From positions 1 through 64,000 of IMG/VR virus record IMGVR_UViG_3300028024_000006: a stretch of DNA of 64,000 nt, one strand, 5' to 3'. The stretch is from a virus. Numbering within the stretch: the stretch's first letter is position 1; each line of letters opens with the position of its first letter. A program made the position numbers and the translations under genes. A model generated the notes under the pieces. It did not search any database, was not told the DNA's origin, and worked only from the letters and a program-made list of their open reading frames with translations. Shown here piece by piece: positions 1,178 through 41,989 of this stretch.

Positions 1178-2026
1178 CTAGCTCTGATTGAACATGAACG
1201 TATCGAACTGGGAAAATGCCATCTGGATTTCCTGCAAGCCGTTCTCACCACGGCTCAGTTCAGTTTCGAGTGATACCGGGCGCACGATATATGTGTCCTC
1301 ATAGCCGCCGTATAGCGCCATGACTTCATCGTTCAGCGCCGCGTGCAGGATGCGGATTTGCAGCAGGTAGTCGGCGGGCACGCCGAACGTACCATCAGGC
1401 TTCACGATGAAGTTCTTGCGCAGGTTGAACCAGCGTTTCATCTGGCCGCTCGCGTCATCGAGCGTCGTGAGCCGGATTTCGTCGCGCTCGCCACCGATAA
1501 CGGCATCGATTGCGCCGGAGCCCACGGAGTACGCTTCGCCGATGACGTTCCCGCCACCGATGGACACGCTCGTGCAAAACAGATTGAAAAGCCCCGACGA
1601 TGGTGCCGCGCCGCCGCCCGGTGTGAAGTCGACAATCTCAATGAAATAGAGGTTTTTCTTCGCGTAGTTCGTGCTCTGCACCTCTTCCACGATCTGCGCG
1701 GCTTCAAACGGCGTGATACCACCGAGTAGCGGATTGCGCAGGCCATTGAACAGCACATTGGTTGCGAGGTCGCCGGTCAGCAGGCTATTGAGCTTGCGCC
1801 CGATTTCGGTCTGTCTTGCGGCATCGAGCCCTGCACCCACAAGGTCCCCGCGCAAAGCCTTGTCGAGCGCGCCAGACGCCTGCGGCGCAATTCTGCCGAC
1901 GGCGTTCTTAACGAGTGCCGTACCCGCGCCCATGACAGAAAAGCCCTTCACTGCGCCAGTAATCTGGCCTAACCGGTTGTTCGTCGTGGTCGTGATGCGC
2001 TGCGTCACTTCGTCAAAGATCGGCAT
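1178..2026 (-). CDS. Tail-tube / baseplate-tube-like structural protein
   Basis: 282 residues. The N-terminal third is Ala/Gly/Asn-rich and helical. The C-terminal half (from about residue 120) has alternating beta strands: YFIEIVDFTP, LFNLFCTSVSIGGG, RDEIRLTTLDDASGQMKRWFNLRKNF, then DYLLQIRILHA and a closing strand EIQMAFSQFDTFMF. That pattern suits the tail-tube or tube-initiator fold (T4 gp19/gp54 type), in which the protein builds the inner tube of a contractile tail. It is located between the portal and a tape-measure-like gene. Its start codon overlaps the stop of the portal gene. The fold assignment is inferred from strand pattern and context, not from a recognised signature. Confidence 0.5.
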   Translation of the reverse strand: MPIFDEVTQRITTTTNNRLGQITGAVKGFSVMGAGTALVKNAVGRIAPQASGALDKALRGDLVGAGLDAARQTEIGRKLNSLLTGDLATNVLFNGLRNPLLGGITPFEAAQIVEEVQSTNYAKKNLYFIEIVDFTPGGGAAPSSGLFNLFCTSVSIGGGNVIGEAYSVGSGAIDAVIGGERDEIRLTTLDDASGQMKRWFNLRKNFIVKPDGTFGVPADYLLQIRILHAALNDEVMALYGGYEDTYIVRPVSLETELSRGENGLQEIQMAFSQFDTFMFNQS

Positions 2027-3702
2027 TACGCATCCTCCTGGTCATCGAGCGGTGGAGTAGTCTTTGCCGGTTTTCCCCCAAAGCCACCGCCGCCGCCGCC
2101 ACCGCCGCCGTCATCGGCCTGTTCCTGTCCGTCGGCGATGGCTTCGAGCAGCGCCTTGGCGATGAGCTTCGCCTGATCCTCGTCAAGCAGCATGATTTTG
2201 GCGAGGATTTCGATGATGGCTTTCTCGTTCTTAAGCCCAAGGTTTTTCAGGCCATCGAGGGTCTGCACGAGTTGCGCGGCAGTATTCTGCGCTTCAGTTT
2301 TGGTCTTCTGACGCTCGCTTTCGAGCGCGGAAATCGTGCCGTAGAAGTTCAGTTCCCAAGGACGCTCGTCGGCGGGGAATACGACGTTGTACTTGTGGAA
2401 GGTATGGACGTCGATAATCTGATTGAAGAAGTCGGCGAGGCCCACGCGGATAAGCCGCGAACGTTCCGCCGCCTGCGCGCTTGTGCGGAAAAAACCGCCG
2501 TCGCCCAGGCCACCGGAGAGCAGTTCGGAAAAGCCGAGCATCGAGAGGTCTACGCCGAGCGCCCCAGCGAGCAGCTTCGCGTAGAACAGCACGTCTTCAA
2601 TCGAGAGCGTTCCCGACTGGCCGCGCCCGCCCCCCGTGGCGAGTGAGCCATTCAGGGCGGTCATCTGTTTGTCGCCCCATGTCGGAATCAGGTGATAGAT
2701 GCGTTCGAGCACCGGGCGGCCCATCTTGATCGCGTCTTCAGCCCGTTGCTTGCTCGCGCGCAGGATCGCCTTCATGTTGTCCATGAACGCGCCGCGCTGT
2801 TCCTTCGTCATGCCGTCCATGTTGACGGTCATCATGGATTCGTCAATCGAATCCAGAACCCGCTGGCCGACTAGCCCGGTCATGGCCGACGTCAGCGCCT
2901 CATAGGGCGTTTCCGCTGCGTCGAGAAACGATCCGCCCACCAGCGAGGGCAGAAGGGGCAGGGCGTTGATATCGTCCGTGTCGAGCGCGGTCCTGATCGC
3001 CTTTTCAAGCGCGCGCACCTGCGGCAGATACACCATGCGCGGCATTTTCATGCGCGCCATCTGATTCAGGTTCAGCGGTACGGTCGATTTCGGGCCGGAA
3101 GCCACCACAAAGCCGACGGTCTGATTACCGCGTTCGTAGCTCGTCACCATAGAGGGATGGACAAGCTCGTCGGCGTAGACGTCCACCACGCCGTTTTTGC
3201 CATCGGTATAGATGCGCGCGTAGGCATCGCCAAATCCCGCGCCGTTGAATGCGACCGTATATGCGATCCTGTTGAACAGCGGCGCGAGGTCTTTGGAAAT
3301 CTCTTCAGCCATTTTCTTTCTGGCCTTGTCATTCTTTCCGTCGTTGGTCGATTCAATGAAAACCGTATCACCGGACGTTTCATGTCCGCCGAGTGCCGCC
3401 GTCACATGCAGGCGGAGTGCGGTCGAAATGATCGGATCGCCGACCATTTCAATGTACTTCATGTAAATCTGCATCCGATTGCGGGCGGTCTTCTTACCGG
3501 AACCGAGCAGCATCGAGACGGTCAGGCCGTCGGTGAGCGCGTCCTGCTGTTCCGTCGCCCCGACGCCTTCGATACCAGTGCCCTTCCCAAAACCGAGTGC
3601 TTTGAGAAAGCCCTTGAATTTGCTGTTTTCTTGCGTCGTGGTTGGCATGGCGAGAGGCGAGGTAGGAACAGCATCCATGATCGCCGCGCCTTTGCCGCTC
3701 AC
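2026..3702 (-). CDS. Portal protein (T4 gp20-like)
   Basis: 558 residues from a GTG at 3702; an ATG at 3678 is an alternative start. Visible features are an N-terminal disordered segment, then NRMQIYMKYIEMVGDPIISTAL, a typical portal opening in which the chain alternates between helices and strands. The middle contains a long helical region with LERIYHLIPTWGDKQ, and a Gly-rich tail (GGGGGGGGG near residue 540) closes the chain. The portal forms the dodecameric DNA gate of the head and docks the terminase. TAAGGAAAACGC lies just upstream, with its AAGGA in reach of the GTG as a ribosome binding site. Overlaps the following tail gene by one base. Confidence 0.75.
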   Translation of the reverse strand: MSGKGAAIMDAVPTSPLAMPTTTQENSKFKGFLKALGFGKGTGIEGVGATEQQDALTDGLTVSMLLGSGKKTARNRMQIYMKYIEMVGDPIISTALRLHVTAALGGHETSGDTVFIESTNDGKNDKARKKMAEEISKDLAPLFNRIAYTVAFNGAGFGDAYARIYTDGKNGVVDVYADELVHPSMVTSYERGNQTVGFVVASGPKSTVPLNLNQMARMKMPRMVYLPQVRALEKAIRTALDTDDINALPLLPSLVGGSFLDAAETPYEALTSAMTGLVGQRVLDSIDESMMTVNMDGMTKEQRGAFMDNMKAILRASKQRAEDAIKMGRPVLERIYHLIPTWGDKQMTALNGSLATGGGRGQSGTLSIEDVLFYAKLLAGALGVDLSMLGFSELLSGGLGDGGFFRTSAQAAERSRLIRVGLADFFNQIIDVHTFHKYNVVFPADERPWELNFYGTISALESERQKTKTEAQNTAAQLVQTLDGLKNLGLKNEKAIIEILAKIMLLDEDQAKLIAKALLEAIADGQEQADDGGGGGGGGGFGGKPAKTTPPLDDQEDA

Positions 3703-6121: not shown

Positions 6122-6309
6122 GAAAGCCCGCGACGCGCCCGGCGCGGCCCGCACCTGAGCCGCGCCCGCGACGCTTCACGCTCGCCGAGGAAATCGCGAT
6201 CATGCGGGTTGCCGTGGAGGGCATGCGGCAGGCGCACGCCGCGCATGAAGCCGATACGGCCATCGAGCGCGCGCGAAAAAAAGCCCGGCAGAAGCCGGGC
6301 AGCAGGTGA
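6118..6309 (+). CDS. Possible third gene of the brn operon (63 aa)
   Basis: Starts at a GTG that overlaps the brnA stop (GTGA). Sequence is Pro/Arg-rich at first (RPARPAPEPRPRR), then a helix FTLAEEIAIMRVAVEGMRQAHAAHEADTAIERARKKA. The 3' end runs through a terminator stem of the opposite strand, so the last residues may be incidental. No family is known and it may not be expressed. Confidence 0.35.
   Translation: MRKPATRPARPAPEPRPRRFTLAEEIAIMRVAVEGMRQAHAAHEADTAIERARKKARQKPGSR
6275..6300 (-). terminator. Rho-independent terminator for the DarB-like operon
   Basis: On the minus strand a 7-bp stem GCCCGGC/GCCGGGC with TTCT loop is followed by eight T residues. It lies about 70 nt beyond the stop of the 6372-6773 gene and closes the minus transcript coming from 18 kb. 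Confidence 0.75.
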
Positions 6310-6371: not shown

Positions 6372-6773
6372 TCAGCCTTGCTCTTCCATGTCCGGGTCGT
6401 ACAGCAGGAACGTGACGCCATCGAGGTCATACTCGCGCGTCATAACGCCGAACTGGCCCCGGTCGTCACCAAACGCCCACGCCGCAATCAGCGTCAGTTC
6501 GTCGTCAGCGGCGGCGTATTCATCCGCCCACATGGGCTCCATGTAAGCACCCGCGCCTACGTCCGCGCCCTGTAGCACGCGCTTGACGGCCCACCAGTAC
6601 GGCCCGTATCGCAGATAGGCGAGCTTGTCGCCCGCCAGTACCTTGACCGTCTGGCCGACGAAGAGCGGCAGCAGGGGCGTGTCTGCGCCGAACTTCGCGG
6701 CGACCTGCGCGGCGTACTCCTGGCGCTTCTCTTCGAGCCACGCCGGGTCCATCTTGTAAGCGGTAATCGTCAT
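6372..6773 (-). CDS. Unknown protein downstream of the DarB-like gene (133 aa)
   Basis: Starts MTITAYKMDPAWLEEKRQEYAAQ; GGA sits 7 nt before this ATG, and an in-frame ATG at 6785 is an alternative. Middle part LFVGQTVKVLAGDKLAYLRYGPYWWAVKRVL looks like a small beta-barrel, followed by EYAAADDELTLIAAWAFGDDRGQFGVMTREYDLDGVTFLLYD. It is the last gene before the terminator at 6275-6300 and probably belongs to the same transcript as the helicase-methylase. No family recognised. Confidence 0.6.
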   Translation of the reverse strand: MTITAYKMDPAWLEEKRQEYAAQVAAKFGADTPLLPLFVGQTVKVLAGDKLAYLRYGPYWWAVKRVLQGADVGAGAYMEPMWADEYAAADDELTLIAAWAFGDDRGQFGVMTREYDLDGVTFLLYDPDMEEQG

Positions 6774-6818
6774 GTCTGGTTCCATGCCACCGCCCGGCAT
6801 CGAGCGGCGGCGTGAGGG

Positions 6819-9800
6819 TTAGAGTTGGTAATCGGCCATGTCCAGACCAAGGTGAGCGAAGAGGCTCGCGAGGGATGCCACTTCGGCCCCGTTGCTGAAC
6901 TTCTGGCCCGGCTCAGTCGTCACGCGGAACGCCTTCAGGCTGTTATCGAACGTGCGGCCTGCCAGACCCCCCGCGCCCGCTACCGCGACCTTGTTGTACG
7001 TCACGCCATCGCGCACGAGTTGCAGGTTAACGTACTTTCCAGCTTCGAACACGAAAGAACCCTTGACGTACTTCGTCGGCGTAAAGCGCTCGTCAGTCGT
7101 GCCGACAAACGCGTCGATCACACCCGGTTGCGCGCGCAGCACCTTCAGGATGCCGGGAATATCGACGCCCGCCGAGTCCGCCGCATGCAGGGCCTTGGCT
7201 TTCTTCGCCCAGCCGACCATGTTCGCCCACAGGGTTGAATAGACGCCCGACACGGTAGCCGCAGCATCGCCCCAGTTGTCCACGTACAGGCGCACGTTGT
7301 TCGACACGCCCATCGAGGCCCGCGTACGTTCCGCGCCGGTCTTCAGTTCGATATGATCGCCCTCCTGCGCGAACACCAGTTCAGCCATTTTCCGACCGTT
7401 GCCGGATGCGAGGAAACCCGACGGCATGGCCGCGTACGGGTAATTGTTGCCCCCGTTTGTGTCGAGAATTTCCGACATAAGGAAGCCGCCTTCGATGGCT
7501 GTTTGCAGTGCCTTGATCGCGTCATCCTTGATCGTCCACTGGATATTGTCCTGAATCAGCACCCAGCGCTCGCGACCGTCGTCAATCTTTGCCTGCGCGC
7601 GCCGGTACGTCGAGATTTCATAGCCCAGTACCGATTCGAGGTTCTTTACTTCGAGCCAGTCGGTTTTGTCCGCGAACCATTGCAGCGCCCACACGTCGAG
7701 GTCTTCCGGCGACTTGCACGCCGCGATACCTTCAGGCAGCACCTTGAAAAAATCGCTCTTGAGGTTCGACTGTTCCACGATGTTACGCAGCGACAGACCG
7801 CTCGAAATTGAGGCGAGGTCTTGCGCACCGGCACGCAGCTTGTGCGCAATGCAGTATTCGCGGATCGCGGCAATCCGGGCCGTCGGATCGGTCAGCGCAG
7901 GGGCAAGGTTGCGCATGTCGCGCGGCTTGACCGCGTTGTAACGCGAGGTCGGTTCGAGCAGCTTTTCCTGTTCGGCAAGGATGCGGTCAATTAGCGGGCC
8001 GCCCGTCGCGTTCTCTTCGAGCGCGAGCGGGAAGTAAGGGCGCTTGAACGAGAACGAATTGCGGCTCAGGGCATCCGACGGGACCGGCACGGTGATGGCT
8101 TCGCGCACGTCCGACACATACGACATGTACAGGCGCGCATCGTCGGCATAGAAGCCGTTCTCCGCGTTCTCCGCGATCACCGACTCGTCAGCACGCGCGG
8201 CCTGTTGCACGAGCGACGTCCAGCGAGCCGTGCCGCGTTCGGTGAAAACCGGCTTCGGCATGCGCAGCAGTTCATAGTCCTTCTGCGTGGCCGGATCGTA
8301 GCCGTACAGCAGGCCCGTCGTGCCGCCGCGCTTGCTACCCTTCGTGACGACAAGCAGCTTGTTCTCGTGCTCGACAAACGAGCCGATAGCGACCAGCGCG
8401 CCCGTCACGATCTGCGCTTCGCCGCGCTTGAACGCTTCGAGTGAATCCGCTGAATAGCCGTCTTCGGCAATCGTCAGGAACCCGCGTTCCGACTCTTCGC
8501 GCATCCGCGACTGGATATTGAAGTCCTTTTTCCAGTTCGCAAAGGCGACCGTCTTGCGTTCGTCGTCGGTCAGCGGTGCCCACACGTTGCGCGGGGAGGG
8601 GACGCGCCCGTTCGTTGCGAGCCCGGCAATCACGCCGAGGGCCGTATCGAATTGCGCGCTCAGTTCGCCGATCTGTTTGCCCAGGCGCGTGCGCATGAGA
8701 TCCGATTCGGTTTCATCGCGGCGGCGGTTCAGTTCGGCGATTTTCGCGGTCGTGATGTTGAGCGAGGAAATCTTCGTATTGACCCACTGGTTAAAGCCTT
8801 TACGCTCGTCGCCGTCGCTATCAATGCCGAACTTGCCAAGCCATTGTGCGGCGGCTTCAATCGTGCGCACGTTCTGCAACTGGCGCACCTTCGCGGCGGC
8901 GACCTTCTCGCGCTTGTTGCGGTTTGCGATTTCGTCATTGATGCGATCCATCGCCCCGGCGTCGCCGACCGCGCTCGCGAGCAGTTCGTAATCGGCGGCG
9001 GTCATGTCGCCTTCGATCTTGATCTTGCTCGAATCGCCCTTCATGAGCGCGCCGATCCAGTCGGCCTTGATGCCGACCAGCTTGCGCTTGTAGGCGTCGA
9101 ACGTGCCGTCGGCGTCATAGTGGTATTCCATGACGCGATCAATCGGGTTGCCCTGACGCACGCCGCGCCCGTTGCGCTGATGGATCGAGTCCGGCGTCCA
9201 TCCAATCGTCATATGGTGGATTGCCTGCGTGCCTTTTTGCAGGTTGATGCCGACTTCGGCCTTTTTGTTGGCGATGATGTATTCATACTTGTTGTCTTCG
9301 CCGTCGGCGTTAAAGCCGTCCTGCACGTCCTGCATACCGGCCACGTCCACCGATACGGCATTCACGATCTTGATTTTCGACGGGGAGATACCGACGCCCT
9401 GCGCGATGGCCAGGCGGATTTTGTGATGCAGGCCCAGTTCGTCACAGAAAATGATCTGTTTCGCGTGCCCCATATGGCGCGGGTAGGCGGCTTCCTTCTT
9501 TACGTTGTCGAGCACCGCCGCGAGCTTCGGGCTCACATTGATGCCCGGCGAAATGCCGTTCGCGTCGAGCAGCTTGAGCAGCACGTCCTGCGTCTCGAAG
9601 TCGGTAGAGAGCAGTTCAATCGCGCTACCGCTCGCGGCCCGGCGCGCGCGGATCGTGATGATGAACTTGCTGATCGCTTCGCCCGTTTCCGTGTCCTTGA
9701 CGACCTTCACCGTCACGTCTTCCGGCGCAGCGTTCGGGTCTTCGTAGTCGCGCAGTTCCTTGATGTTCTTTTTGTTGAACACGTCGATAGCCTTGACCGC

Positions 9801-12800
9801 TGCGGCTTCGTCGGCGCGCTCGAACTTGAACGTCAAGATGCCCGCATCGAGTTCCGGGTCGTTGATGACCTTCGTCATCTTGCGAATCAGGTTGAACGGG
9901 GAGGCCGCGAGCTTTTCTTCGGGGCTCGCACCGCCGCCCGCCTTCAGCACCGCCACCGCATCAAGGTACTGATCCTTGTAGTCGATGATTTTGGCGTAGG
10001 AGTCCGCGCCGATATCGACGCCGGTCGCAATCAGTTCGCTTTCCGGCACGCTGATATTGATGCCATCCGCCTTGACGTCTTCGGCGGTCTTGATGACGGC
10101 GGACGTTTGCAGCAGGCGGCGCAGGAGCCCGGCATTTTGCAGACCGGTAAAGACGCGTACCGGGCGCAGGATGCCAACGATGTTTTCCTCTTCGCGCTCG
10201 TCAATATCGCAGGCAGCGGCCATGAATGAGTCCGCGCCGGTCACGCCGTACATGGCATTCACTTCGGCTTCGCCCAGCGCCAGCGTGAGCATCGAATAGA
10301 CTTCGAGCGGCGAATTGGTGACAGGCGTCGCGGTCAGCGAAATCACGCCGTCATTGCGCGCGGTCAGGCCCCGGACGTACCAGGCTTTCGCCTGCATATC
10401 CATGCCGCGCTGCGACTTGGCCGGATCGGCGAGGTACTTCGCGCCCTTGAATTCCGAAGACGTGAGCTTCGAATTCTTGTAGTTGTGCGCTTCGTCAAGC
10501 ACGAGCGAATCGACGCCGAGGTCTTCAAAGAAGGGCAGCGCGCCCGACTTCACACCCAAATCCTTGACCTTGCCCGCCTGCGCGTCGGCGGCGATGTTCG
10601 CGCGCTTGCTCTGCGCTTCCTCTTCGGCGAGTGCGTAGGCGTCGTCGTTTTCCGTCAGGTACGCAATATACGACTCCATCGTTTCATCGCGCAGCGGAAT
10701 CAGCTTGAACGCTTCGAGCGTCATGAAAATCTTGCTATGACGGTTCTCGCGGATCACATTCAGGTCGATCTTGACCTGCGCGTTATCCACCTTGTCCTTG
10801 CCGTTTTTTCCCGCCACCACGCCCACGAACAGGCAGTCGGACGTGTCGAGGTACGCCTTGCCCGCTTCTTTCTTCCAGTTCGTGAGGGTCGCATTCGGGA
10901 CCACGAAAAACGTTTTCTTTTTCGCACCGATGGACTGGACATAGGCGGTCGTGGCGAGGGCCGTCAGGGTCTTGCCGAGCCCGACGTCAAAACCGAGCAC
11001 GCCGCCGAACGAGCGCCCGTAGCGGCGCGCCGCCGCGTACTGGTACGCATGCGGCTTGAACGTTTCCGTATTCAGGTTCGGGATATCGAGCGGCGTGCCG
11101 TCCGGCTCTTCGATAAAGCGAAGCGCGTTCGGGTCATTGAGCTTCTGATGTAGTGCCGCCTGCACTTCCTCATTGGCGCGCGCCCACGAATCGAATTGCG
11201 CCTTGGCCTTGTCGGCAATTTCCTTGATACGGCGCAGCAGGGCGGCTTCGGCGGCCGGATCGGATTCGACGTCCGCCGACTTGCTCATGGTCGTGATGTT
11301 CTGGTTCTTCAGGTAGCCCTTGACAAACCGTTGCATCGCCTTGTGCGCGGCGCGGTCTTCCGCGCTCGCATACTTCGGAACCGACCCCTGCTTGATATCG
11401 AATTCGTCGCCCGAAATGATGATATCCGGCGATACATAGGTGCGCAGGAATTCGAGCTTCTGAAGCATCGAGACGTGCGGCGTGAAGAGGTTGAACGTCA
11501 TGGTGGAGACGTCCACCACGTTGATACGCTCTTTCGCGCGGTCCATCTGGCGCACGATCTTTGCCCGGACGTCCGGGTCCGTCGCCGCTTCGAGGTCGGC
11601 TTGCGACTGCTTCAGGAACCCGCCATATGTGCCCATGTAATAGTCGTTCGCGTGAATGACGCTCTGCCCATCCGCACCGATACACCACTCTTCCGATTCG
11701 AGCGGGTCGAAGTCCGTCAGCGCTTCGCGCAGCTTCGAGACCGGCACATAGCCGGTTTCGTCTTCGCTCTCGTAGCGGATCTTTTCGTAGAGTTGCGTCG
11801 GCGTGAGGGCCTTCGTCTCGACGTTGGCGCGGATTTCGCCGAGCCAGAAGGGCGTGAATTCGCCCTTGATGCGCGCGTTGCGGATCGACAGCAGCGCGTC
11901 CTTGACGAGTCGAGAGCCTTTCGCGATGGTCTTGTTGCCGTATGCCTGGCACTTGGCGAGTTGCGTCGAGAGCAGCGGGTAGGCGGACTTGTAGTCAAAC
12001 GGTTCCGACGAATCCGCCGCCTGCATCAAGTCCATTGCGGCCATGCCCGCCGTGATGGCTTCCCACCACGGTTGCATGTCGCCTTCGCCGAGCGTTTTGA
12101 CGGCCTTGCTTGTCGCGGTGAGCCACGGCTGAACGTCGGCATACTTGCCCATTTTCAGGGTGTAGTCGATATACGCATCGGCCTGCGCCCACGTCACACC
12201 CGCATTGACGGCATCGAGCGGGCTATTGACCTTCTGCCCAAGGTCGAGCATGGCGCGGTCGTCGGCGACCTGCGAATCGAGCGCGTGCCACTCGCCATCG
12301 CGGTATTCGAGCGTCTGGCCGCCCTGATGGATCACGTCGCCATCGGCGTAGACAATCGGCGCGGTTTCGGTCGCGTTCAGCAGTTCCCAGTCGATATGCG
12401 AGTGCGGGAAGCGCTTGAGCAGCTTCGCGATGTTGCCGATGGAGTCGTCATTGATGACCTTCTCGACTTCGCCGAACTTGCTCATGCCCATCGCGGTTTC
12501 GCCGAGCACGTACTTGCGGCCTTCGCCCTTGAAGTACTGGCCGTCGAGGAATTCCGGCCACAGCACACGCGCTTCAGTGAGCACAGCGGGGTTCTGTTCC
12601 TGCAATTCGGTGATGCGCTGCGCGGTCGCGCGCGAGAACTTGCGGAACACGATCACGTCGGTAATCGTGTCGGCGGCAGCGGACTCGGTAAAAATCTTGT
12701 TCGGCAGGCGGTACGCGCCGACGAATTCGGCCATGAGTGACGCTTCGAGCCGCAGCTTGCACGACTTCGCGCCCTTGCCGCCCACGATGGACGGCGGCAC

Positions 12801-13658
12801 GATGAACGCGGCGAGCCCGTTAGGCTTGAGCTTTTGCAGCGAGCGCAGGATGAAATATTCCTGAAGGTTCCGCTTCTGGAAACGCTTGTCTTTCTGCGCG
12901 TTATCACCCCGCATGGCGAGGTCGCCGAACGGGACGTTGGTGACGACCGCATCATAGATTTCGTCCGGCGTCGCGGCGGCAATGGCTTCGAACGGCGAGA
13001 CGGTTGTATTGACGGTCGGGCCGTCATTGATGGCCGCGTTGATCGCGCCGCTCGTTTCGTCCAGTTCGATCTGCGTCATAACCGCGGTCTTCGGGCGCGT
13101 GGCTGTAAAGATTCCGCTACCCGCCGACGGGTCGAGCACAGAGCCGCCCGCAAAGCCCAGTTCGCCGAGCAGCCCCCACACGCCTTCGGCGATAGGCTTC
13201 GGGGTGTAGTACTCATGCGGGGAGCCCGTGAGGCCGTCAGCGCCCGTAAGACCCCCGCCGTTGCCGCTGTACTTCGCGAGGATGGCGCGCTCTTCGTCGG
13301 TCACTTCGACGTCGCCCGCCTGAATCCGGCGCAGCAGGGCAATCGCGGCGTTGTTGTCTTTCTGCCGTTGCGTGACAGTCTTGCGGCCTTCGTCCGGGTA
13401 AAACTCTGCGGTTGGTTCCGCGCGCACGGCAGGCGCGGCAGCGGGGGCGGCGACAGATTGAGCGGGAGGGCGATTGCCCAGTTCGATGGCGATTTCGCGG
13501 ATGCGCTTGCCGATCTTCAACGCGCGGATCATGTCCGCCGTGTCGGCAGTGAGCGATGCACGCTCTTTGACGAGCATCTTGCCTTCGCGCGCGAGACGCA
13601 TACGCGCGAGGTCGGACGCCATCATATTCGTGGCGTCATCAAGGATTAGAGTGGTCAT
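6819..13658 (-). CDS. DarB-like adenine methylase / SNF2 helicase fusion
   Basis: 2279 residues. An N-terminal N6-methyltransferase domain has HEYYTPK (about residue 150), SAM motif DPSAGSGIF (about 175) and the catalytic-type motif NVPFG (about 240). A SNF2 helicase follows: FDVGLGKT (Walker A, about 890), VLDEAHNYKNS (about 1052), SLTATPVTNSP (about 1109), and motif VI GRGVRQGNPID (about 1497). Several hundred further residues have no clear domain. The order and size match P1 DarB (about 2250 aa), which travels in the virion and protects incoming DNA from type I restriction; related proteins are widespread in phages and conjugative elements. Downstream of a gene for another polyvalent protein, from which it is split by a hairpin and a TAGGAAAACGC motif. 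Intact reading frame. Confidence 0.85.
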   Translation of the reverse strand: MTTLILDDATNMMASDLARMRLAREGKMLVKERASLTADTADMIRALKIGKRIREIAIELGNRPPAQSVAAPAAAPAVRAEPTAEFYPDEGRKTVTQRQKDNNAAIALLRRIQAGDVEVTDEERAILAKYSGNGGGLTGADGLTGSPHEYYTPKPIAEGVWGLLGELGFAGGSVLDPSAGSGIFTATRPKTAVMTQIELDETSGAINAAINDGPTVNTTVSPFEAIAAATPDEIYDAVVTNVPFGDLAMRGDNAQKDKRFQKRNLQEYFILRSLQKLKPNGLAAFIVPPSIVGGKGAKSCKLRLEASLMAEFVGAYRLPNKIFTESAAADTITDVIVFRKFSRATAQRITELQEQNPAVLTEARVLWPEFLDGQYFKGEGRKYVLGETAMGMSKFGEVEKVINDDSIGNIAKLLKRFPHSHIDWELLNATETAPIVYADGDVIHQGGQTLEYRDGEWHALDSQVADDRAMLDLGQKVNSPLDAVNAGVTWAQADAYIDYTLKMGKYADVQPWLTATSKAVKTLGEGDMQPWWEAITAGMAAMDLMQAADSSEPFDYKSAYPLLSTQLAKCQAYGNKTIAKGSRLVKDALLSIRNARIKGEFTPFWLGEIRANVETKALTPTQLYEKIRYESEDETGYVPVSKLREALTDFDPLESEEWCIGADGQSVIHANDYYMGTYGGFLKQSQADLEAATDPDVRAKIVRQMDRAKERINVVDVSTMTFNLFTPHVSMLQKLEFLRTYVSPDIIISGDEFDIKQGSVPKYASAEDRAAHKAMQRFVKGYLKNQNITTMSKSADVESDPAAEAALLRRIKEIADKAKAQFDSWARANEEVQAALHQKLNDPNALRFIEEPDGTPLDIPNLNTETFKPHAYQYAAARRYGRSFGGVLGFDVGLGKTLTALATTAYVQSIGAKKKTFFVVPNATLTNWKKEAGKAYLDTSDCLFVGVVAGKNGKDKVDNAQVKIDLNVIRENRHSKIFMTLEAFKLIPLRDETMESYIAYLTENDDAYALAEEEAQSKRANIAADAQAGKVKDLGVKSGALPFFEDLGVDSLVLDEAHNYKNSKLTSSEFKGAKYLADPAKSQRGMDMQAKAWYVRGLTARNDGVISLTATPVTNSPLEVYSMLTLALGEAEVNAMYGVTGADSFMAAACDIDEREEENIVGILRPVRVFTGLQNAGLLRRLLQTSAVIKTAEDVKADGINISVPESELIATGVDIGADSYAKIIDYKDQYLDAVAVLKAGGGASPEEKLAASPFNLIRKMTKVINDPELDAGILTFKFERADEAAAVKAIDVFNKKNIKELRDYEDPNAAPEDVTVKVVKDTETGEAISKFIITIRARRAASGSAIELLSTDFETQDVLLKLLDANGISPGINVSPKLAAVLDNVKKEAAYPRHMGHAKQIIFCDELGLHHKIRLAIAQGVGISPSKIKIVNAVSVDVAGMQDVQDGFNADGEDNKYEYIIANKKAEVGINLQKGTQAIHHMTIGWTPDSIHQRNGRGVRQGNPIDRVMEYHYDADGTFDAYKRKLVGIKADWIGALMKGDSSKIKIEGDMTAADYELLASAVGDAGAMDRINDEIANRNKREKVAAAKVRQLQNVRTIEAAAQWLGKFGIDSDGDERKGFNQWVNTKISSLNITTAKIAELNRRRDETESDLMRTRLGKQIGELSAQFDTALGVIAGLATNGRVPSPRNVWAPLTDDERKTVAFANWKKDFNIQSRMREESERGFLTIAEDGYSADSLEAFKRGEAQIVTGALVAIGSFVEHENKLLVVTKGSKRGGTTGLLYGYDPATQKDYELLRMPKPVFTERGTARWTSLVQQAARADESVIAENAENGFYADDARLYMSYVSDVREAITVPVPSDALSRNSFSFKRPYFPLALEENATGGPLIDRILAEQEKLLEPTSRYNAVKPRDMRNLAPALTDPTARIAAIREYCIAHKLRAGAQDLASISSGLSLRNIVEQSNLKSDFFKVLPEGIAACKSPEDLDVWALQWFADKTDWLEVKNLESVLGYEISTYRRAQAKIDDGRERWVLIQDNIQWTIKDDAIKALQTAIEGGFLMSEILDTNGGNNYPYAAMPSGFLASGNGRKMAELVFAQEGDHIELKTGAERTRASMGVSNNVRLYVDNWGDAAATVSGVYSTLWANMVGWAKKAKALHAADSAGVDIPGILKVLRAQPGVIDAFVGTTDERFTPTKYVKGSFVFEAGKYVNLQLVRDGVTYNKVAVAGAGGLAGRTFDNSLKAFRVTTEPGQKFSNGAEVASLASLFAHLGLDMADYQL

Positions 13659-13681
13659 TTATCGCCGGGGAAAGAGTTAGG

Positions 13682-13709
13682 CCGCACTCTGATTTTCGAG
13701 TGCGGTTTT
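13682..13709. other. Strong hairpin between the two giant genes
   Basis: CCGCACTC/GAGTGCGG, 8-bp stem with an 8-nt loop. On the plus strand it is followed by TTTTG, so it could stop antisense transcription. On the minus strand it lies in the 5' leader of the DarB-like gene without a T-run, where it could mark an mRNA 5' end. Confidence 0.5.
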
Positions 13710-13723
13710 GCTCTTCTTGCCCG

Positions 13724-13735
13724 GCGTTTTCCTAG
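13724..13735 (-). promoter_or_regulatory. Late-gene motif CTAGGAAAACGC upstream of DarB-like gene
   Basis: Exact copy of the shared motif, about 65 nt before the ATG at 13658 and within the gap after the polyvalent gene. Confidence 0.5.
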
Positions 13736-13769
13736 CTCTGACGGGCCTTGCAGCCCGCATGGAGCCCGC

Positions 13770-16700
13770 TTAATTCAGCGACTTGGACATTTCATCAACG
13801 TAGGCATTGATCGCAGCACGGGCCGCGTCCACCACCGCCGCATCGTCGCCGTACTTCTGGACAATCGCTTCGATGCGTTCCGACGGGTCGTTCGTCCACA
13901 TGTCGATACGGCCTTCGGTGACGTCGCTCAGGAACGCGAGGTCAGCGGCGCGCAGCGGGTCGTCACCTTCGCCAGCGGCGGCGGGCACTGCGTTCGTACC
14001 TTCCGGTAGCGGCTGATCGACTGGCACAACCGGATCGACGGCGGTCGAATCGAGTTCACCGGGCCACTCTTCGGCCATGACCGAGGTCACTTCGGCGGTG
14101 AGGTCCGGACGGTTCGCGATGATCCAGTTCGCGAGGGCGGCGCGCGTCACGCCGTCGATGTTGTCGGCGGCGAGCGAGTTGAGCACGCGATAGACGTCCA
14201 CGCGGCGAAGTTCCGCGATGCTATCGGCAGAGACCTTGATGTAGTTTTCCATATCGACAGGGGCGGCAGGTTGTGCGCTTGCAGGCGCGGGTTCAGGGAT
14301 TGGCTCAGGTGCGGGTTCCGGCGCAGCAGCAGGCACGAGTGGGGCGGCTTCCGGCTCGTCGGTTTCGGGTTGCCAGTCCGGGTCTTTCAGATAGCCAATC
14401 GGTGCGGCTTCCCAGTACAGGTCGAGTTCGACACCGTTGCGCACGAGTTCATCAATGCTGATATAGCCAATTTCGGCATCGTCGCGGCGTCCATTCAGGA
14501 CCGCGAGGCCAAAAGCCTGCTTAGTCCCGTTGCCGGTCTTGTCCTTTTCCGTGATGTAGAAGTCAGAGCCGCCACTGAAATAGTGCAGGTATGCGACAGC
14601 GGAGAGGCCCTTGCCGTCCTGTTCGTAGGTCTTCGGCATCATGTCGATAACGCCCGCCCACTCAATGGCCTTGTCGATGAAATGCTGGCCTTCCTCGCCC
14701 GCCATCATTTGCCCGATCACGCGGCGTTGCGCGCTTGGCATGAATGCGGTGAGGCGTTCGAGTGCTTTCATGCCCTTGCCGCGCGATGCCTGGCTGACCG
14801 GCTCCGGCTTCGCGTTGATGGCCGCCTGCCAGCTTTCGGCGCGGTCTATGTATTCCTGCGGGCTCGCTTCGAAAGCACGCATGGCAATGCCGACAGCGCC
14901 CGCGTTGGTCGAGCGCTTCGCATTCTTGAACGCGATTACGTCTTCGTCGGAATATAGCTTCCAGCCCTTTGCGAGCGGCTGATATCCATTGTTTTCCGTG
15001 ACGACCTTTCCATCGTGAACAAAGCCGGTATAAGGCCCGAGTTGCGCGAATTGCAGCTTGGGCGGCGCGGCTTCCGGCGCGATGCGCGCGTTGGCGGCGT
15101 TGGCCGTGTGCCATGCCTTCGTGTAAGCCGTCAGTATGTCGTTGGTGCCGCCGCCCACCGGCAGGCCCGCAATCAACGGCATAACAGCGGGGTTGAGGGC
15201 AGGGGCCGAGCCAAGGCCGTCGGCGAATGCCTGCGCGCCCATTTCGGCGGCGCGCGCGATGCGCTCTTCGACGCTCAGGCCCGGCGCGGCTTCGGGTTCC
15301 GGCGTCGGCGCTTGGTACGCCGTGCTTGCCGCCCATTCCATCGTGCGGGTATTGAACGCGAGCGCAAGGTCATGCGCCGTGCCGTCGCGCGTGTCGATAT
15401 CGAACACCGTATCAAAGCCGGACATGAGCGCGAGGTAACGCGCAGTGTCATCGAACTGCGCGAACACGTAGCGATTGCCTTCCGGGTTAAGTTCGCCAGA
15501 CGTGTCGCCGCCGCCTACGTCCTTTTTCACAGTGCCGTGTTCGGTCTTGATCCAGCCCAGGTCAGCCAGCGCGTCGAGCACCTGTTCGGACTTATGGGGC
15601 GGCTCGACGTAGACCGGCGCGGCCCCTTCCGGCATACCCTTGGCGGCGAGCGCTTTCAGTTCGCCGTAGGTCTTGCCCTTGTTCAAATCTGCGAGTTGCG
15701 AGCCAATGCTTTCGTCGCGTTCCTGCGCGGACATTTCGAGGTAGGCAGGCAGGTACTCTGCGTCGATAGTTTGCAGAGCCATCGCGATTTGAGTCGCCTT
15801 GTCGGCGGCGAACACAGCCACCGCGCCGTTACTGCGGTTTTCAGTGATCGCTTGCGCCGCGCCTGCGTCGGACAGGTCGATAAGTGCGTAGAAGCGGCCT
15901 TCGAGCATTGGGCCATTGTCGAGCACCGTATCGCCGACGAGCGGGCGCGGGGCGTTCATTACGAGCCAGCGAGAGGTATCGGCTATGCCATCGAAGGGCA
16001 CTTCGGCAGATACCACGCCGGGCAGCGAATCGATGTCTACGGCGGCGGGCGCAGCAGCTTCCGGCTCTGCGGCAACTGCGACGACGGCGGCTGCATCCGG
16101 CTCTGCAAGCGCGGCGAAAAGGTCGTCAGCGGACGCGGCCACGGGGGCAGGCGCTTCGGCGACCGTATAGCCTGCCTCGCGCAGTTGTTGAATCGTGCCT
16201 TCTACCTGCGCATGAAGCACCTTGCCGGTGCCGTCTGTCTGTTCCGCAATGCTCTTCCATGCTTCCTGACCGGCAGCGGTCTCCGGGTAGAACGCCGTGA
16301 ACATGTCATCCACCGCGCGATAGGTGATATCCGGCGCTCCATCGGCAGCAGGTACGGCAGCGACCGCTTCCGGGTCGATACCGACAGGCGTTTCGATGAC
16401 CGGCTCAGGTTGCGGCACGACGACGGCGACCGGTTCGAGCGGCAGTTCCGGTTGCGCGGCGGCGGCAGCGGCGCGGGCGGCTTCTTCGGCGGCAATGCTC
16501 TCGCGCAGTGTCGCGAGGTAGCCGAGGCTCGTCTGAATGTCGTCCGGGTGCATCTGCTTGAGCTTCGCGCGCAGGTCGTATTCATCGAGCTTGTCGCCGC
16601 CAGCAATGGAGGTCGGCTCATAGATCGCCATCTGACGCAGGTCTTCGAGGGAGAGTGCGTCAATCTGCGCATCGAGCGCGGCCTGAATGGCGTCGAGCGT

Positions 16701-18038
16701 GGCGTTGTCCTGATTGTCGATAGCGGTTTGCGCGACGGTCTTCTCGTCCGGCTCCATCGCAGCGGCAACCTGCGTTGCCAGCGGCACTTCCGGCTCTGCG
16801 GCAGCTTGCGGTTCCGGGTCTGCGGCCTTCGGCGGCTTCGTGGCGACCTTCACTTCGAGGTCTGCGATTTCAGACAGCAAGCCATTAAGGGTTTCGGTCT
16901 TCGTCTCGAATTCGCCCTTCAGCGTATCAATGGCTTCCATGACGGCGGCGCGCTTGGCGTTGGCCGTCTGGAATCGAGCGCTGTTCTTCTTCGCCAGCAT
17001 CATGACGCGCGCGGCGACGCTGCGAACGTTGAGGTCGCGCCCGCGTTCCGGCGCAACAACAATCGTCACGTCCTTTTTGTTGAGCATCCATTTCCACGAT
17101 ACAAGCTCGTCGCTGGGCATGATCTTGCCTGGCGTCACGTCCGGGTTATGGAAAAAGATGGTCAGGGTTTGCCCGTCGGACAGCTCGAAAATCGCCGCGA
17201 TGTTGGTCGTGCCGTTGCGCTTGAACGGGTCCGTCACCTGCATCGCGAGTACGGACAGGTCGCCGCCCACGCGATTGAGCAGCTTTTGCAGGATCGCCAT
17301 CTGACGTTCGAGCTTCCGGTAGGGCAGCACGAGCGCATCGAGTTGGATCACGCCGTCCGAGTCTTCGAGAATATCGGCCATCGTCACGGCGTCAAAAATC
17401 AGCACGTCATCCTTGTCGTGCTCGCGAATGGCGTACAGCACTTGTGCGAGGGTTGCGCCCTTCGGTTGCGGTTGTTCCGCGCTATCCCAAAGTACCTTTT
17501 CCATAGCCTTGCGTTCCTCGTTGGGGAGTTGTTCCGGCGTGAGGGGCTTCGACAGGTCGCCGTTCGCCATCCACCACTTGAGTTGATCGACGGTGCAGGC
17601 CACGCAGCTATTGAGGCCCGGCCATCCCGGTTTGAAGTTGCTTAGATAGACCGATTCCGCCGTGCGCCGGTCTGGAAATCCGATCATGACCTTGTGCTCG
17701 TCCCACGCACCGCGCACGAACTGATTGATGACGAACACCTGATCGATTTCAGGGTAGGGGCCGATGTAGCAATCCAGTTCGTCACCGTCCGCGCCGGTCA
17801 CGCCCGCGAAGCCGCCGTAATGCGCGGTTTGCAGGTTCTCGCCGCTTGTGCCGTCGTCCGCCGACCATTTGCGCATCGAGCCGCGCGGGTTCTCGATCAC
17901 GACCGGGATGCCCTGAAACGAGCCATGACCTTTCGTGTAGTCGTCCGTTTCGCGCTGCGCGCGCGAGGGTTCCGGCAGCGTGTTCATGCCGTATGCGCCC
18001 GCGTGGGCGGCTTCGAAAAGTCGCGTAAAGGAGTCCAT
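13770..18038 (-). CDS. Polyvalent protein with N-terminal pyrophosphatase-like domain
   Basis: 1422 residues from ATG 18038; the frame stays open upstream to 18110, but the TAGGAAAACGC motif lies there. The N-terminal 160 residues contain SFQGIPVVIENPRGSMRKW, GADGDELDCYIGP (about residue 85), DEHKVMIGFPDRRTAESVYLSNF and GLNSCVACTVDQLKWWM. That is the inorganic-pyrophosphatase-like domain found in phage and plasmid polyvalent proteins. Beyond are coiled-coil and Ala/Pro/Glu-rich linkers (EPAPEPIPEPAPAS near residue 1270) joining several unidentified globular parts. Such proteins are thought to enter the cell with the DNA and counter host defences. Lies directly upstream of the DarB-like gene, and the two may be co-packaged. 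The division of functions between its domains is unknown. Confidence 0.7.
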   Translation of the reverse strand: MDSFTRLFEAAHAGAYGMNTLPEPSRAQRETDDYTKGHGSFQGIPVVIENPRGSMRKWSADDGTSGENLQTAHYGGFAGVTGADGDELDCYIGPYPEIDQVFVINQFVRGAWDEHKVMIGFPDRRTAESVYLSNFKPGWPGLNSCVACTVDQLKWWMANGDLSKPLTPEQLPNEERKAMEKVLWDSAEQPQPKGATLAQVLYAIREHDKDDVLIFDAVTMADILEDSDGVIQLDALVLPYRKLERQMAILQKLLNRVGGDLSVLAMQVTDPFKRNGTTNIAAIFELSDGQTLTIFFHNPDVTPGKIMPSDELVSWKWMLNKKDVTIVVAPERGRDLNVRSVAARVMMLAKKNSARFQTANAKRAAVMEAIDTLKGEFETKTETLNGLLSEIADLEVKVATKPPKAADPEPQAAAEPEVPLATQVAAAMEPDEKTVAQTAIDNQDNATLDAIQAALDAQIDALSLEDLRQMAIYEPTSIAGGDKLDEYDLRAKLKQMHPDDIQTSLGYLATLRESIAAEEAARAAAAAAQPELPLEPVAVVVPQPEPVIETPVGIDPEAVAAVPAADGAPDITYRAVDDMFTAFYPETAAGQEAWKSIAEQTDGTGKVLHAQVEGTIQQLREAGYTVAEAPAPVAASADDLFAALAEPDAAAVVAVAAEPEAAAPAAVDIDSLPGVVSAEVPFDGIADTSRWLVMNAPRPLVGDTVLDNGPMLEGRFYALIDLSDAGAAQAITENRSNGAVAVFAADKATQIAMALQTIDAEYLPAYLEMSAQERDESIGSQLADLNKGKTYGELKALAAKGMPEGAAPVYVEPPHKSEQVLDALADLGWIKTEHGTVKKDVGGGDTSGELNPEGNRYVFAQFDDTARYLALMSGFDTVFDIDTRDGTAHDLALAFNTRTMEWAASTAYQAPTPEPEAAPGLSVEERIARAAEMGAQAFADGLGSAPALNPAVMPLIAGLPVGGGTNDILTAYTKAWHTANAANARIAPEAAPPKLQFAQLGPYTGFVHDGKVVTENNGYQPLAKGWKLYSDEDVIAFKNAKRSTNAGAVGIAMRAFEASPQEYIDRAESWQAAINAKPEPVSQASRGKGMKALERLTAFMPSAQRRVIGQMMAGEEGQHFIDKAIEWAGVIDMMPKTYEQDGKGLSAVAYLHYFSGGSDFYITEKDKTGNGTKQAFGLAVLNGRRDDAEIGYISIDELVRNGVELDLYWEAAPIGYLKDPDWQPETDEPEAAPLVPAAAPEPAPEPIPEPAPASAQPAAPVDMENYIKVSADSIAELRRVDVYRVLNSLAADNIDGVTRAALANWIIANRPDLTAEVTSVMAEEWPGELDSTAVDPVVPVDQPLPEGTNAVPAAAGEGDDPLRAADLAFLSDVTEGRIDMWTNDPSERIEAIVQKYGDDAAVVDAARAAINAYVDEMSKSLN

Positions 18039-18076
18039 ACGGCCATTGTCGGGGGCGGGCCGCGCGCGCCGGTCAC

Positions 18077-27452: not shown

Positions 27453-28328
27453 TTAGACCCCGTACCGTTGCTTGGCCGCGTCGAGCACGGCATCGCCTTT
27501 CGTCTCTTCGGCGGGCAGCTTCTCGAAGCCGACGCACTTCGCCGCGCTGAATGCGTTCGCGCGTGCCATAAAGGCGCGCGTGGCGGACTTGCTCACGACC
27601 ATCGGGCGGGTCTGTTCGTCGCCGGTCGAGTCGAGCACGATCACACCGTTTTCGTTGGCCGTGCCGCGCGAGGAAAGCATCGAGAGCATTTCCTCGTTCT
27701 CTTCGCGAAGCCGTGCCATCGTCGCGAGTGCGAGGTCGTGATCGCGCATGATCGAGTCGTACATCGTTTTCATCGCGGCCATGCCGTGCGTCCAGTCGGC
27801 CATGACCGCATCGAGCATCATGCCGTCGAAGCCCTCGCCGGTCGAGTCGAGCATATAGCCGCGATTGGTCGTGAAGTTCGGCTCAAACACGAAATCGAAC
27901 CCGGCGAAGATGATCGGCACGTCCACCGGGCCATTGGGTTTGGCGAAAATCGCGCTAGAAAAGCCGCCCTTTCGGCTGTTGAAACAGCGTTCGGCAAGCT
28001 CGCCGGCAGCGGTATCCAGAAACTCTGCCTCATGCTCAATGTTGCCGTCGTCGTCCGCCTTCAGGTGCGTGGTGACGAGAGCCGGTTCGATGTACACCGG
28101 CTTGCCGGTTTCCTTGTCCACCACCATTTCGGGCGGCTGGATGCCGTACTTCATGCGCACGATATGCCCATAGAAGCCGTGCAGGTCGCGGTTTTTCACG
28201 CGCTCCTGTACTTCGTTGCCGTTCACGATGGAAGCAAGGGCGCGCGTATCAAGATTGCGGTCCTTGCCGATGAACTTACGCCCGCGCTCGCGCACGTTGT
28301 AAGTGATTTTGCCGGTCTTCTTGCCCAT
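27453..28328 (-). CDS. Prohead protease-like protein (291 aa)
   Basis: Pattern of the T4 gp21/herpes-assemblin-like protease: NRDLHGFYGHIVRMKYG (candidate catalytic His), PALVTTHLKADDDGNIEHEAEFLDTAAGELAERCFN, RKGGFSSAIFAK (candidate Ser, aligning with GISS in other phage proteases), then AGFDFVFEPNFTTNRGYML where the family has F-D-x-V-x-x-P-S. A coiled-coil, scaffold-like segment follows (MRDHDLALATMARLREENEEMLSML). Such enzymes trim the scaffold and capsid during head maturation. The motif match is by eye and the gene sits beside baseplate genes, so a tail role remains possible. Confidence 0.5.
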   Translation of the reverse strand: MGKKTGKITYNVRERGRKFIGKDRNLDTRALASIVNGNEVQERVKNRDLHGFYGHIVRMKYGIQPPEMVVDKETGKPVYIEPALVTTHLKADDDGNIEHEAEFLDTAAGELAERCFNSRKGGFSSAIFAKPNGPVDVPIIFAGFDFVFEPNFTTNRGYMLDSTGEGFDGMMLDAVMADWTHGMAAMKTMYDSIMRDHDLALATMARLREENEEMLSMLSSRGTANENGVIVLDSTGDEQTRPMVVSKSATRAFMARANAFSAAKCVGFEKLPAEETKGDAVLDAAKQRYGV

Positions 28329-41495: not shown

Positions 41496-41989
41496 CGACT
41501 AAACCTGATGCTGCGCGCGCCACCGCCCCGCAGTTGCCGCCCTTCCCTACGATGCTTCGCAAAATGTGGAGTGGCCGCGAAGTGCAGCAATGGATTGATG
41601 AGAATATCAAGCCGGTCGCCCAACCCAGCGACGACTATAAGGCGATGTTCGAAGACGCCGTTCGCGACCTTGCCGCGATCACCGCAGCGCTCGATATCCA
41701 CCCGGATCAATCGGGCGGCGCGGGGCCGGTTCTCAAAGCCATCGAGGCCCTGAAGAAAGGCGGCGGTGGTGAAGCGGCCATGCAGCGCGCCTGCGGCGAG
41801 TTGCCCGATGGTTTCAAGTTGCATGTATGCCTTGAAGCCGGGGCCGGTTGGGTCGAGCTTTTCGGCCCCGACAATGAGCGAATCGAGTTTGACGAAGACA
41901 CCAACGATGGCATGACGGGGCGCATTCACGCGGCTATCGACCTCGTTGTGAAGGCCGATAAGGAATTCGAGGATTTGAACCGTGAGTGA
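41492..41989 (+). CDS. Early protein of unknown function (165 aa)
   Basis: MTTKPDAARATAPQLPPFPTMLRKMWSGREVQQWIDENIKPVAQPSDDYKAMFEDAVRDLAAITAALDIHPDQSGGAGPVLKAIEALKKGGGGEAAMQRACGELPDGFKLHVCLEAGAGWVELFGPDNERIEFDEDTNDG. Helical first half, strand-rich second half; closing helix IHAAIDLVVKADKEF. No family recognised. Confidence 0.6.
   Translation: MTTKPDAARATAPQLPPFPTMLRKMWSGREVQQWIDENIKPVAQPSDDYKAMFEDAVRDLAAITAALDIHPDQSGGAGPVLKAIEALKKGGGGEAAMQRACGELPDGFKLHVCLEAGAGWVELFGPDNERIEFDEDTNDGMTGRIHAAIDLVVKADKEFEDLNRE

What the first reader, a model, noticed from the sequence alone, without database searches (positions are those of the whole stretch)
6819..18038. DarB-like protein beside a pyrophosphatase-domain polyvalent protein
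Seen: a 2279-residue methylase-SNF2 fusion with all key motifs and, upstream, a 1422-residue protein starting with a pyrophosphatase-like domain. Known: polyvalent proteins of phages and conjugative elements combine such domains and are thought to enter the cell with the DNA; P1 DarB protects against type I restriction. Together with Lar at 41982 the phage appears to have layered anti-restriction. Most of the polyvalent protein remains unassigned and may hide new anti-defence domains.
Basis: partly seen in the sequence, partly recalled or inferred. Interest (0 to 1): 0.62.

Follow-up and report, generated by a model that had tools for sequence, protein, structure and literature searches.

The report
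P1-type antirestriction head-protein module, dual start
This phage carries a relative of phage P1's set of proteins that are packed inside the virus head and injected to shield its DNA; here the core head protein is fused to a pyrophosphatase enzyme, and the gene family appears to use a second, internal start so that the head protein is made both with and without the enzyme.

Summary
6819-13658(-) is a full-length DarB homologue (N6-adenine methylase plus SNF2 ATPase, all motifs kept). 13770-18038(-) starts with an inorganic-pyrophosphatase (InPase) domain. Ulx lies downstream, Pro and portal elsewhere in the window, and Hdf and the major capsid protein in the rest of the 94 kb record. It is a P1-type Dar module; relatives include Xanthomonas phage Rb1 and Burkholderia plasmid pBVIE05.

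New here: (1) in all 53 InPase-DarA genes examined a Met sits at the InPase/DarA junction, where InPase-less DarA genes start. It has a Shine-Dalgarno-like site (42/49; 13% at other Mets) and a sharp third-position GC drop (z=-15; 19/20 clusters), so the gene probably makes DarA with and without InPase. (2) InPase hops between positions in the module but keeps its active site. (3) A two-helix N-terminal motif on DarB recurs on other cargo, and a 54-residue C-terminal domain on DarA and neighbours; both are candidate packaging or docking signals. Packaging and function are inferred. The Lar claim is weak.

The parts
13770..18038 (-). InPase-DarA fusion gene (1422 aa), DarA-type internal head protein
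   Evidence: Pfam InPase 2.2e-38 and DarA_N 2.2e-43; NCBIfam DarA 5.7e-25, below equivalog cut-off
17568..17960 (-). InPase domain (aa 27-157); DGDELD and DEHK motifs, E49, R56
   Evidence: catalytic residues invariant in relatives; Foldseek to family-I pyrophosphatases
17514..17519 (-). Shine-Dalgarno-like GAGGAA, -15 to -10 of internal ATG
17502..17504 (-). proposed internal in-frame start codon (Met179) for InPase-less DarA
   Evidence: conserved Met, GC3 depletion z=-15 in the family, aligned with true starts of InPase-less DarA genes
16980..17345 (-). DarA_N domain (aa 232-353)
   Evidence: PDB 9ukm_I P1 DarA by sequence 2e-22 and by fold 4.5e-10
16839..17027 (-). long helix after DarA_N (aa 338-400), counterpart of the capsid-bound alpha-helical domain of P1 DarA
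   Evidence: AlphaFold model; P1 structure described in PMC12810830
16509..16745 (-). recurrent segment M1 (aa 432-510)
   Evidence: 9 distinct members in Dar-module proteins
16155..16331 (-). recurrent segment M2 (aa 570-628)
   Evidence: 15 distinct members
15639..16019 (-). domain M3 (aa 674-800), no PDB fold match
   Evidence: 8 members incl. separate cargo genes; AF2 pLDDT 91 for M3+M4; best PDB E 0.2
15327..15599 (-). domain M4 (aa 814-904), no PDB fold match
   Evidence: 11 members
14394..14699 (-). DUF2958-like domain (aa 1114-1215)
   Evidence: phrog_5203 4e-20; its homologues L016 and L032 hit PF11171 above cut-off
14058..14234 (-). small helical 'Tail' domain (aa 1269-1327)
   Evidence: phrog_20105 1e-12
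13797..13952 (-). C-terminal tag domain (aa 1363-1414)
   Evidence: 7e-15 to family model; 76 of 77 members end within 15 aa of the C-terminus
13679..13708 (.). stem-loop in the 111-bp gap between DarA and DarB
   Evidence: fold z -2.2; listed as a terminator-like match
6819..13658 (-). DarB homologue, N6-adenine methylase + SNF2 ATPase, 2279 aa
13476..13610 (-). two-helix N-terminal motif of DarB (aa 17-61), candidate packaging/docking tag
   Evidence: only hit in the 94 kb record, E 1.5e-15; shared with other module proteins
12618..13214 (-). DarB N6 methylase domain (DPSAGSG, NVPF)
9090..11024 (-). DarB SNF2 ATPase (GLGKT, DEAH, TATP, QRNGRGVRQG)
6372..6800 (-). Ulx homologue
   Evidence: PHROG Ulx-like 7.5e-27
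6283..6300 (-). terminator after Ulx
   Evidence: 7 G-C-pair stem plus T run
27453..28328 (-). Pro (prohead protease) homologue
   Evidence: P1 Pro 1.2e-18
2026..3702 (-). portal homologue
   Evidence: P1 Prt 2e-42

Best explanation
A P1-type Dar module. By homology to P1, DarA (here with an N-terminal InPase) and Hdf line the inside of the capsid and are ejected with the DNA, while DarB (helped by Ulx) is loaded into the head and, after injection, moves on and methylates or occupies the incoming DNA in cis so that type I restriction enzymes cannot cut it. In this branch the DarA gene is probably a dual-start gene. Ribosomes starting at ATG 18038 make InPase-DarA; ribosomes starting at the internal ATG 17504 make plain DarA. 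The head can then carry many structural DarA copies and fewer enzyme-bearing ones. The InPase most likely hydrolyses pyrophosphate or a related phosphoanhydride in the freshly infected cell. The DarB N-terminal helix pair probably plays the part that the N-terminal capsid-targeting sequence plays in P1 DarB. Shown here: domain identities, module composition, intact catalytic motifs, family-level signature of internal initiation, sharing of the terminal motifs. Inferred: packaging, injection, protection against restriction, the two products, their ratio, the substrate of InPase, the role of the motifs.
For: DarA_N and InPase; P1 DarA by sequence 2e-22 and fold 4.5e-10, then pyrophosphatases. 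DarB 28% identical to P1 over 1600 aa, 1e-130, all motifs. Ulx 7.5e-27; Hdf, Pro and portal. Same module in pBVIE05, a Paraburkholderia contig and Rb1. Internal start: Met present in all 53 genes (by regular expression or by eye), nearly invariant in the alignment; GC3 at codons -11..+4 0.438 against 0.675 expected, z=-15, 48/49 genes, 16 shifted controls between -4.4 and +6.8, 19/20 clusters at 65% identity; SD-like 4-mer 42/49 against 12.9% of other Mets; Gly(-4) codon GGA 27/36 against 10% elsewhere; same position as the real start of InPase-less DarA genes. InPase catalytic residues invariant even when relocated. N-terminal motif: 35 hits in 37 whole records, 34 in the Dar module. P1 facts from PMC12810830 and PMC9024508.
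Against: No expression or virion data. SD duplex energy at the internal ATG is better than at other Mets but no better than synonymous shuffles allow, because the encoded Glu-Gly itself gives an SD. In the window gene alone the GC3 dip is weak (8/15 against 9.6 expected); the claim rests on the family. P1 DarB has no detectable helix pair although its N-terminus targets the capsid. P1 DarA lacks InPase and the C-terminal tag. The NCBIfam DarA equivalog cut-off is not reached (88 of 350 bits).
Confidence: 0.75

Rival explanations
1. The internal Met and its codon signature are a fossil of an old gene fusion and are no longer used; only the full-length InPase-DarA is made, perhaps cut later by the Pro protease near residues 160-185 as P1 DarA is cut near residue 70.
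For: InPase-less DarA genes start exactly there; Pro is encoded; P1 DarA loses about 70-90 N-terminal residues (PMC12810830). In the window alone the codon signature is weak.
Against: Synonymous sites are expected to be saturated at 40-60% protein identity, yet 19 of 20 clusters keep the GC3 dip and 42 of 49 genes keep an SD-like site; a fossil should have decayed.
Confidence: 0.2
2. The Dar genes are mainly head-morphogenesis factors (size and stability), and restriction protection by DarB is minor or host-specific in this phage.
For: P1 DarA and Hdf act in head morphogenesis and capsid stability (PMC12810830, PMC9024508).
Against: DarB keeps every catalytic motif and InPase keeps its catalytic residues, which a purely structural role would not need.
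Confidence: 0.2
3. InPase does not act on PPi but on a nucleotide alarm signal or modified nucleotide made by host defence.
For: Iyer et al. 2017 (PMC5512222) propose this from neighbourhoods with NUDIX, GNAT and TmrB; the polyvalent InPase lacks the beta-hairpin of cellular enzymes (same paper).
Against: The acidic metal-site motifs of PPase are fully kept; no direct data either way.
Confidence: 0.35
4. The shared N-terminal helix pair and the C-terminal tag are not packaging signals but dimerisation or scaffold-protein contacts spread by recombination, or in the case of the helix pair partly convergent amphipathic helices.
For: Short, Leu/Lys/Arg-rich, found by iterative search; one outlier in Rb1 far from the module (L005 7196-7570).
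Against: 34 of 35 hits lie in the module across whole records; all 35 DarB copies with the motif follow a gene that ends in the C-terminal tag; [quoted passage not shown]
Confidence: 0.4

Closest known systems
Phage P1 Dar system (DarA, Hdf, DdrA, DdrB, DarB, Ulx)
   Same: DarA_N protein, Hdf, DarB and Ulx homologues plus Pro and portal; darB followed by ulx
   Different: DarA carries InPase, DUF2958-like and tag domains; DarA directly precedes DarB; no ddrA or ddrB gene between them; internal start in darA; DarB N-terminus not alignable with P1's
Polyvalent proteins of Iyer et al. 2017 (InPase, DarA-N, ddrB-ParB, LPD domains)
   Same: multi-domain phage proteins combining these named domains
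   Different: here the same domains are seen moving between DarA, Hdf and separate genes of one module; internal start and shared terminal motifs: a term search of that paper for 'internal start', 'capsid targeting' and 'packaging signal' found nothing
Xanthomonas phage Rb1 (PQ569993) 'internal head protein' and 'chromatin remodeling complex ATPase'
   Same: orthologous InPase-DarA (49% over 416 aa), DarB (38%), Ulx
   Different: Rb1 has a 154-aa helix-pair protein and a DdrB-like peptidase gene between DarA and DarB; the window has none
Burkholderia vietnamiensis G4 plasmid pBVIE05
   Same: DarB 67% identical over its full length, InPase-DarA, Ulx, helix pair and C-terminal tag
   Different: keeps a separate ParB + Tail + tag gene (774 aa) between DarA and DarB
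In-frame internal starts in phage capsid genes such as lambda C/Nu3 (own knowledge, not looked up)
   Same: one gene, two products with a common C-terminus in head assembly
   Different: here the longer product adds an enzyme, not a protease

Membership tests
P1-type DarA (internal head protein) | DarA_N domain followed by long helix | tested here: met
P1-type DarA (internal head protein) | NCBIfam DarA equivalog cut-off | tested here: not met
   88 of 350 bits: a homologue and working analogue, not the P1 equivalog
P1-type DarA (internal head protein) | present inside the virion and ejected | not testable with these tools
   needs virion proteomics
DarB | N6-adenine methylase and SNF2 ATPase in one chain with all motifs | tested here: met
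   P1 DarB 1e-130
DarB | followed by ulx | tested here: met
   PHROG Ulx-like 7.5e-27 at 6372-6800
DarB | N-terminal capsid-targeting sequence | tested here: inconclusive
   conserved N-terminal helix pair present but not alignable with P1 DarB
DarB | protects against type I restriction in cis | not testable with these tools
   plating assay needed
P1 Dar module | Hdf, Pro, portal and capsid in the same genome | tested here: met
   Hdf 9e-39, Pro and portal, capsid homologous to P1 gp23 1e-17
P1 Dar module | ddrA and ddrB genes | tested here: not met
   no ParB- or peptidase-family hit in the 94 kb record; only the DUF2958-like domain fused to DarA
Family-I inorganic pyrophosphatase (polyvalent InPase, PF18823) | acidic metal-site motif DxDxxD and DEHK | tested here: met
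Family-I inorganic pyrophosphatase (polyvalent InPase, PF18823) | PPi hydrolysis | not testable with these tools
   enzyme assay needed
Lar restriction alleviation (41982-42449) | curated Lar score | tested here: not met

The most novel reading that the evidence does not exclude
In a large branch of P1-like phages the head protein DarA is a dual-start gene that sets how many capsid-lining DarA copies carry a pyrophosphatase. Payload proteins (methylase-ATPase, peptidase, DUF2958, LPD1 and PBECR1 proteins) are plugged into the head through two interchangeable terminal modules, an N-terminal helix pair and a C-terminal 54-residue domain, making the Dar module a general cargo-loading system.
Probability: 0.45. 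Interest if true: 0.78.

Novelty: new variant of a known kind. Interest (0 to 1): 0.58.

Why it matters
It turns 'a DarB next to a mystery protein' into a complete, widespread cargo system with a testable loading logic. If the internal start is used, it explains how a structural head protein can be joined to an enzyme without filling the capsid with it. If the terminal motifs are loading signals, new injected anti-defence proteins can be found by the tag rather than by similarity to known inhibitors, which answers a question left open by the P1 work (no common capsid-targeting consensus was found, PMC9024508).

Tried and rejected
(1) Near-identical phage DNA: none. (2) That InPase replaces the cleaved propeptide of P1 DarA: rejected as a general rule because InPase also sits C-terminal of DarA_N, on Hdf, or in another gene. 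(3) SD strength by synonymous shuffling: not informative; used codon choice and GC3 instead. (4) L067 as an unfused InPase/DarA pair: on inspection a frame break within a fusion. (5) A Pro cleavage motif shared with the P1 capsid site (E120|S121): P1, Rb1 and window capsid N-termini align too poorly to define one. (6) Fold of M3+M4 against PDB and viral models: nothing convincing. (7) Terminator-like hits overall are at chance level, so only the site after Ulx is used.
Full report
Identity. The window is the first 64 kb of a 94,463-bp virus record, GC 60%. The 2279-aa product at 6819-13658(-) is a DarB homologue: 28% identical to P1 DarB over 1600 residues (1e-130) and 38% to the Rb1 protein. 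It has DPSAGSG and NVPF methylase motifs (P1 also has NVPF) and all SNF2 motifs. The 1422-aa product at 13770-18038(-) has InPase at 27-157 and DarA_N at 232-353. Sequence search of the PDB returns P1 DarA (9ukm, 2e-22). The AlphaFold model (mean pLDDT 88) matches P1 DarA (4.5e-10) and next family-I pyrophosphatases (1.6e-3 and weaker).

Module. Ulx follows DarB (7.5e-27) and is followed by a strong terminator at 6300-6283. Pro and portal are in the window. Hdf (8.7e-39 PHROG; DarA_N 2.6e-12) and the capsid protein lie at 89.0-89.5 and 87.3-88.9 kb of the record. The same module is on the 88-kb plasmid pBVIE05 of Burkholderia vietnamiensis G4 (DarB 67% identical over its full length), on a 93-kb contig of Paraburkholderia sp. 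C35, and in Xanthomonas phage Rb1. The group is thus a P1-like phage lineage, partly phage-plasmids, of Pseudomonadota.

Domain traffic. Scans of IMG/VR with the whole protein, DarA_N and Hdf gave 30, 80 and 80 loci. Among 77 distinct DarA clusters, InPase precedes DarA_N in 50, follows it in 5, is fused to Hdf in 2, and sits in another gene in 2; one of these (L067) is only a broken fusion. In 18 no InPase is seen nearby, some of these being truncated. The catalytic motifs are invariant in the 30 members aligned first, apart from rows truncated at a contig end, including relocated copies. ParB and peptidase halves of P1 DdrB are likewise separate or fused to DarA or DUF2958 proteins. The window lost any gene between DarA and DarB; its DUF2958-like and Tail domains, separate genes in relatives L010-L014 and L016, are fused to DarA.

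Internal start. InPase-less DarA proteins begin M-x(1-8)-W-[D/N] exactly where the fusion proteins have a Met (window Met179). Upstream of that Met the codons are typically GAA GGA (GAG GAA in the window). Gly at -4 is GGA in 27 of 36 genes against 10% elsewhere. An SD-like 4-mer occurs at 42 of 49 sites against 12.9% of other in-frame Mets, and in about two thirds of all predicted genes of the record (61/92). Third-position GC falls to 0.438 (expected 0.675) only over codons -11 to +4 (z -15; 48/49 genes); a conserved Met in DarA_N and 16 shifted positions give -4.4 to +6.8. Reduced to 20 clusters at 65% identity the result holds (19/20, z -7.8). The upstream start at 18038 has an SD-like site in only 8 of 46 genes. 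I read this as active internal initiation. The duplex-energy test against synonymous shuffles did not discriminate, the window gene alone shows only a weak dip, and a second smaller GC3 dip lies near codons -28 to -26.

Terminal motifs. A 46-residue helix pair at the DarB N-terminus (window aa 17-61; E 1.5e-15, the only hit in the record) also begins or interrupts peptidase, DUF2958, LPD1 and PBECR1 proteins of the module. In 37 whole records it hits 35 times, 34 of them inside the module; the only P1 hit is DdrA (6e-4). The 34/35 count was made by converting record positions to the known locus ranges. The model was built iteratively from some of the same sequences, so their E-values are partly circular. 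A 54-residue domain ends 55 DarA proteins and 22 others, within 15 residues of the C-terminus in 76 of 77, and lies in the gene before every one of 35 DarB copies that carry the helix pair. The free-standing small proteins that carry the motifs have no Pfam hit. In P1 the DarB N-terminal 30 residues suffice for capsid targeting, and no shared consensus was found (PMC9024508). The motifs are candidates for that role here, not shown.

Function. P1 DarA and Hdf form 55 pairs on the inner capsid at penton-hexon junctions and touch DNA (PMC12810830); DarB protects DNA in cis against EcoK-like enzymes (cited in PMC5512222). I extend this to the window by homology. For InPase, PPi clearance or hydrolysis of a defence nucleotide are both open (PMC5512222).

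Verdict. Real, largely explained by the P1 Dar system, with three additions worth testing: the dual start, the mobile but catalytically conserved InPase, and the shared terminal motifs.

Noticed in passing
   Followed up: yes
window 15327-16019: Two domains (M3, M4) model at pLDDT 91 but match no PDB structure better than E 0.2; M3 also occurs in separate cargo genes (L184, L185).
   Followed up: partly
L031 752-1774, L034 8479-9498: Hdf fused at its C-terminus to an intact InPase.
   Followed up: partly
L114 12842-18484: One ORF with InPase, LPD3, ADP-ribosyltransferase, ddrB-ParB, a LAGLIDADG homing-endonuclease domain and a helicase stretch.
   Followed up: no
window 13679-13708: Stem-loop (fold z -2.2) in the gap between DarA and DarB.
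   Followed up: no
L009 12488-19312: DarB of the 93,160-bp contig (same length as the Paraburkholderia sp. C35 contig) is split into two ORFs (599 and 1671 aa).
   Followed up: no
L005 7196-7570 (Rb1): 125-aa protein with the DarB-type helix pair, far from the Dar module and near the terminase genes.
   Followed up: no
window 18039-18062 and relatives: The upstream start of InPase-DarA lacks a Shine-Dalgarno site in 38 of 46 genes; several instead share an ACAATGG or ACCATGC element just before the ATG.
   Followed up: partly
InPase-DarA genes, codons -28 to -26 relative to Met179: A second, smaller GC3 dip of unknown cause.
   Followed up: no
window 34064-35149: 361-aa protein with a weak MazG-like pyrophosphatase match (1.3e-4).
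   Followed up: no
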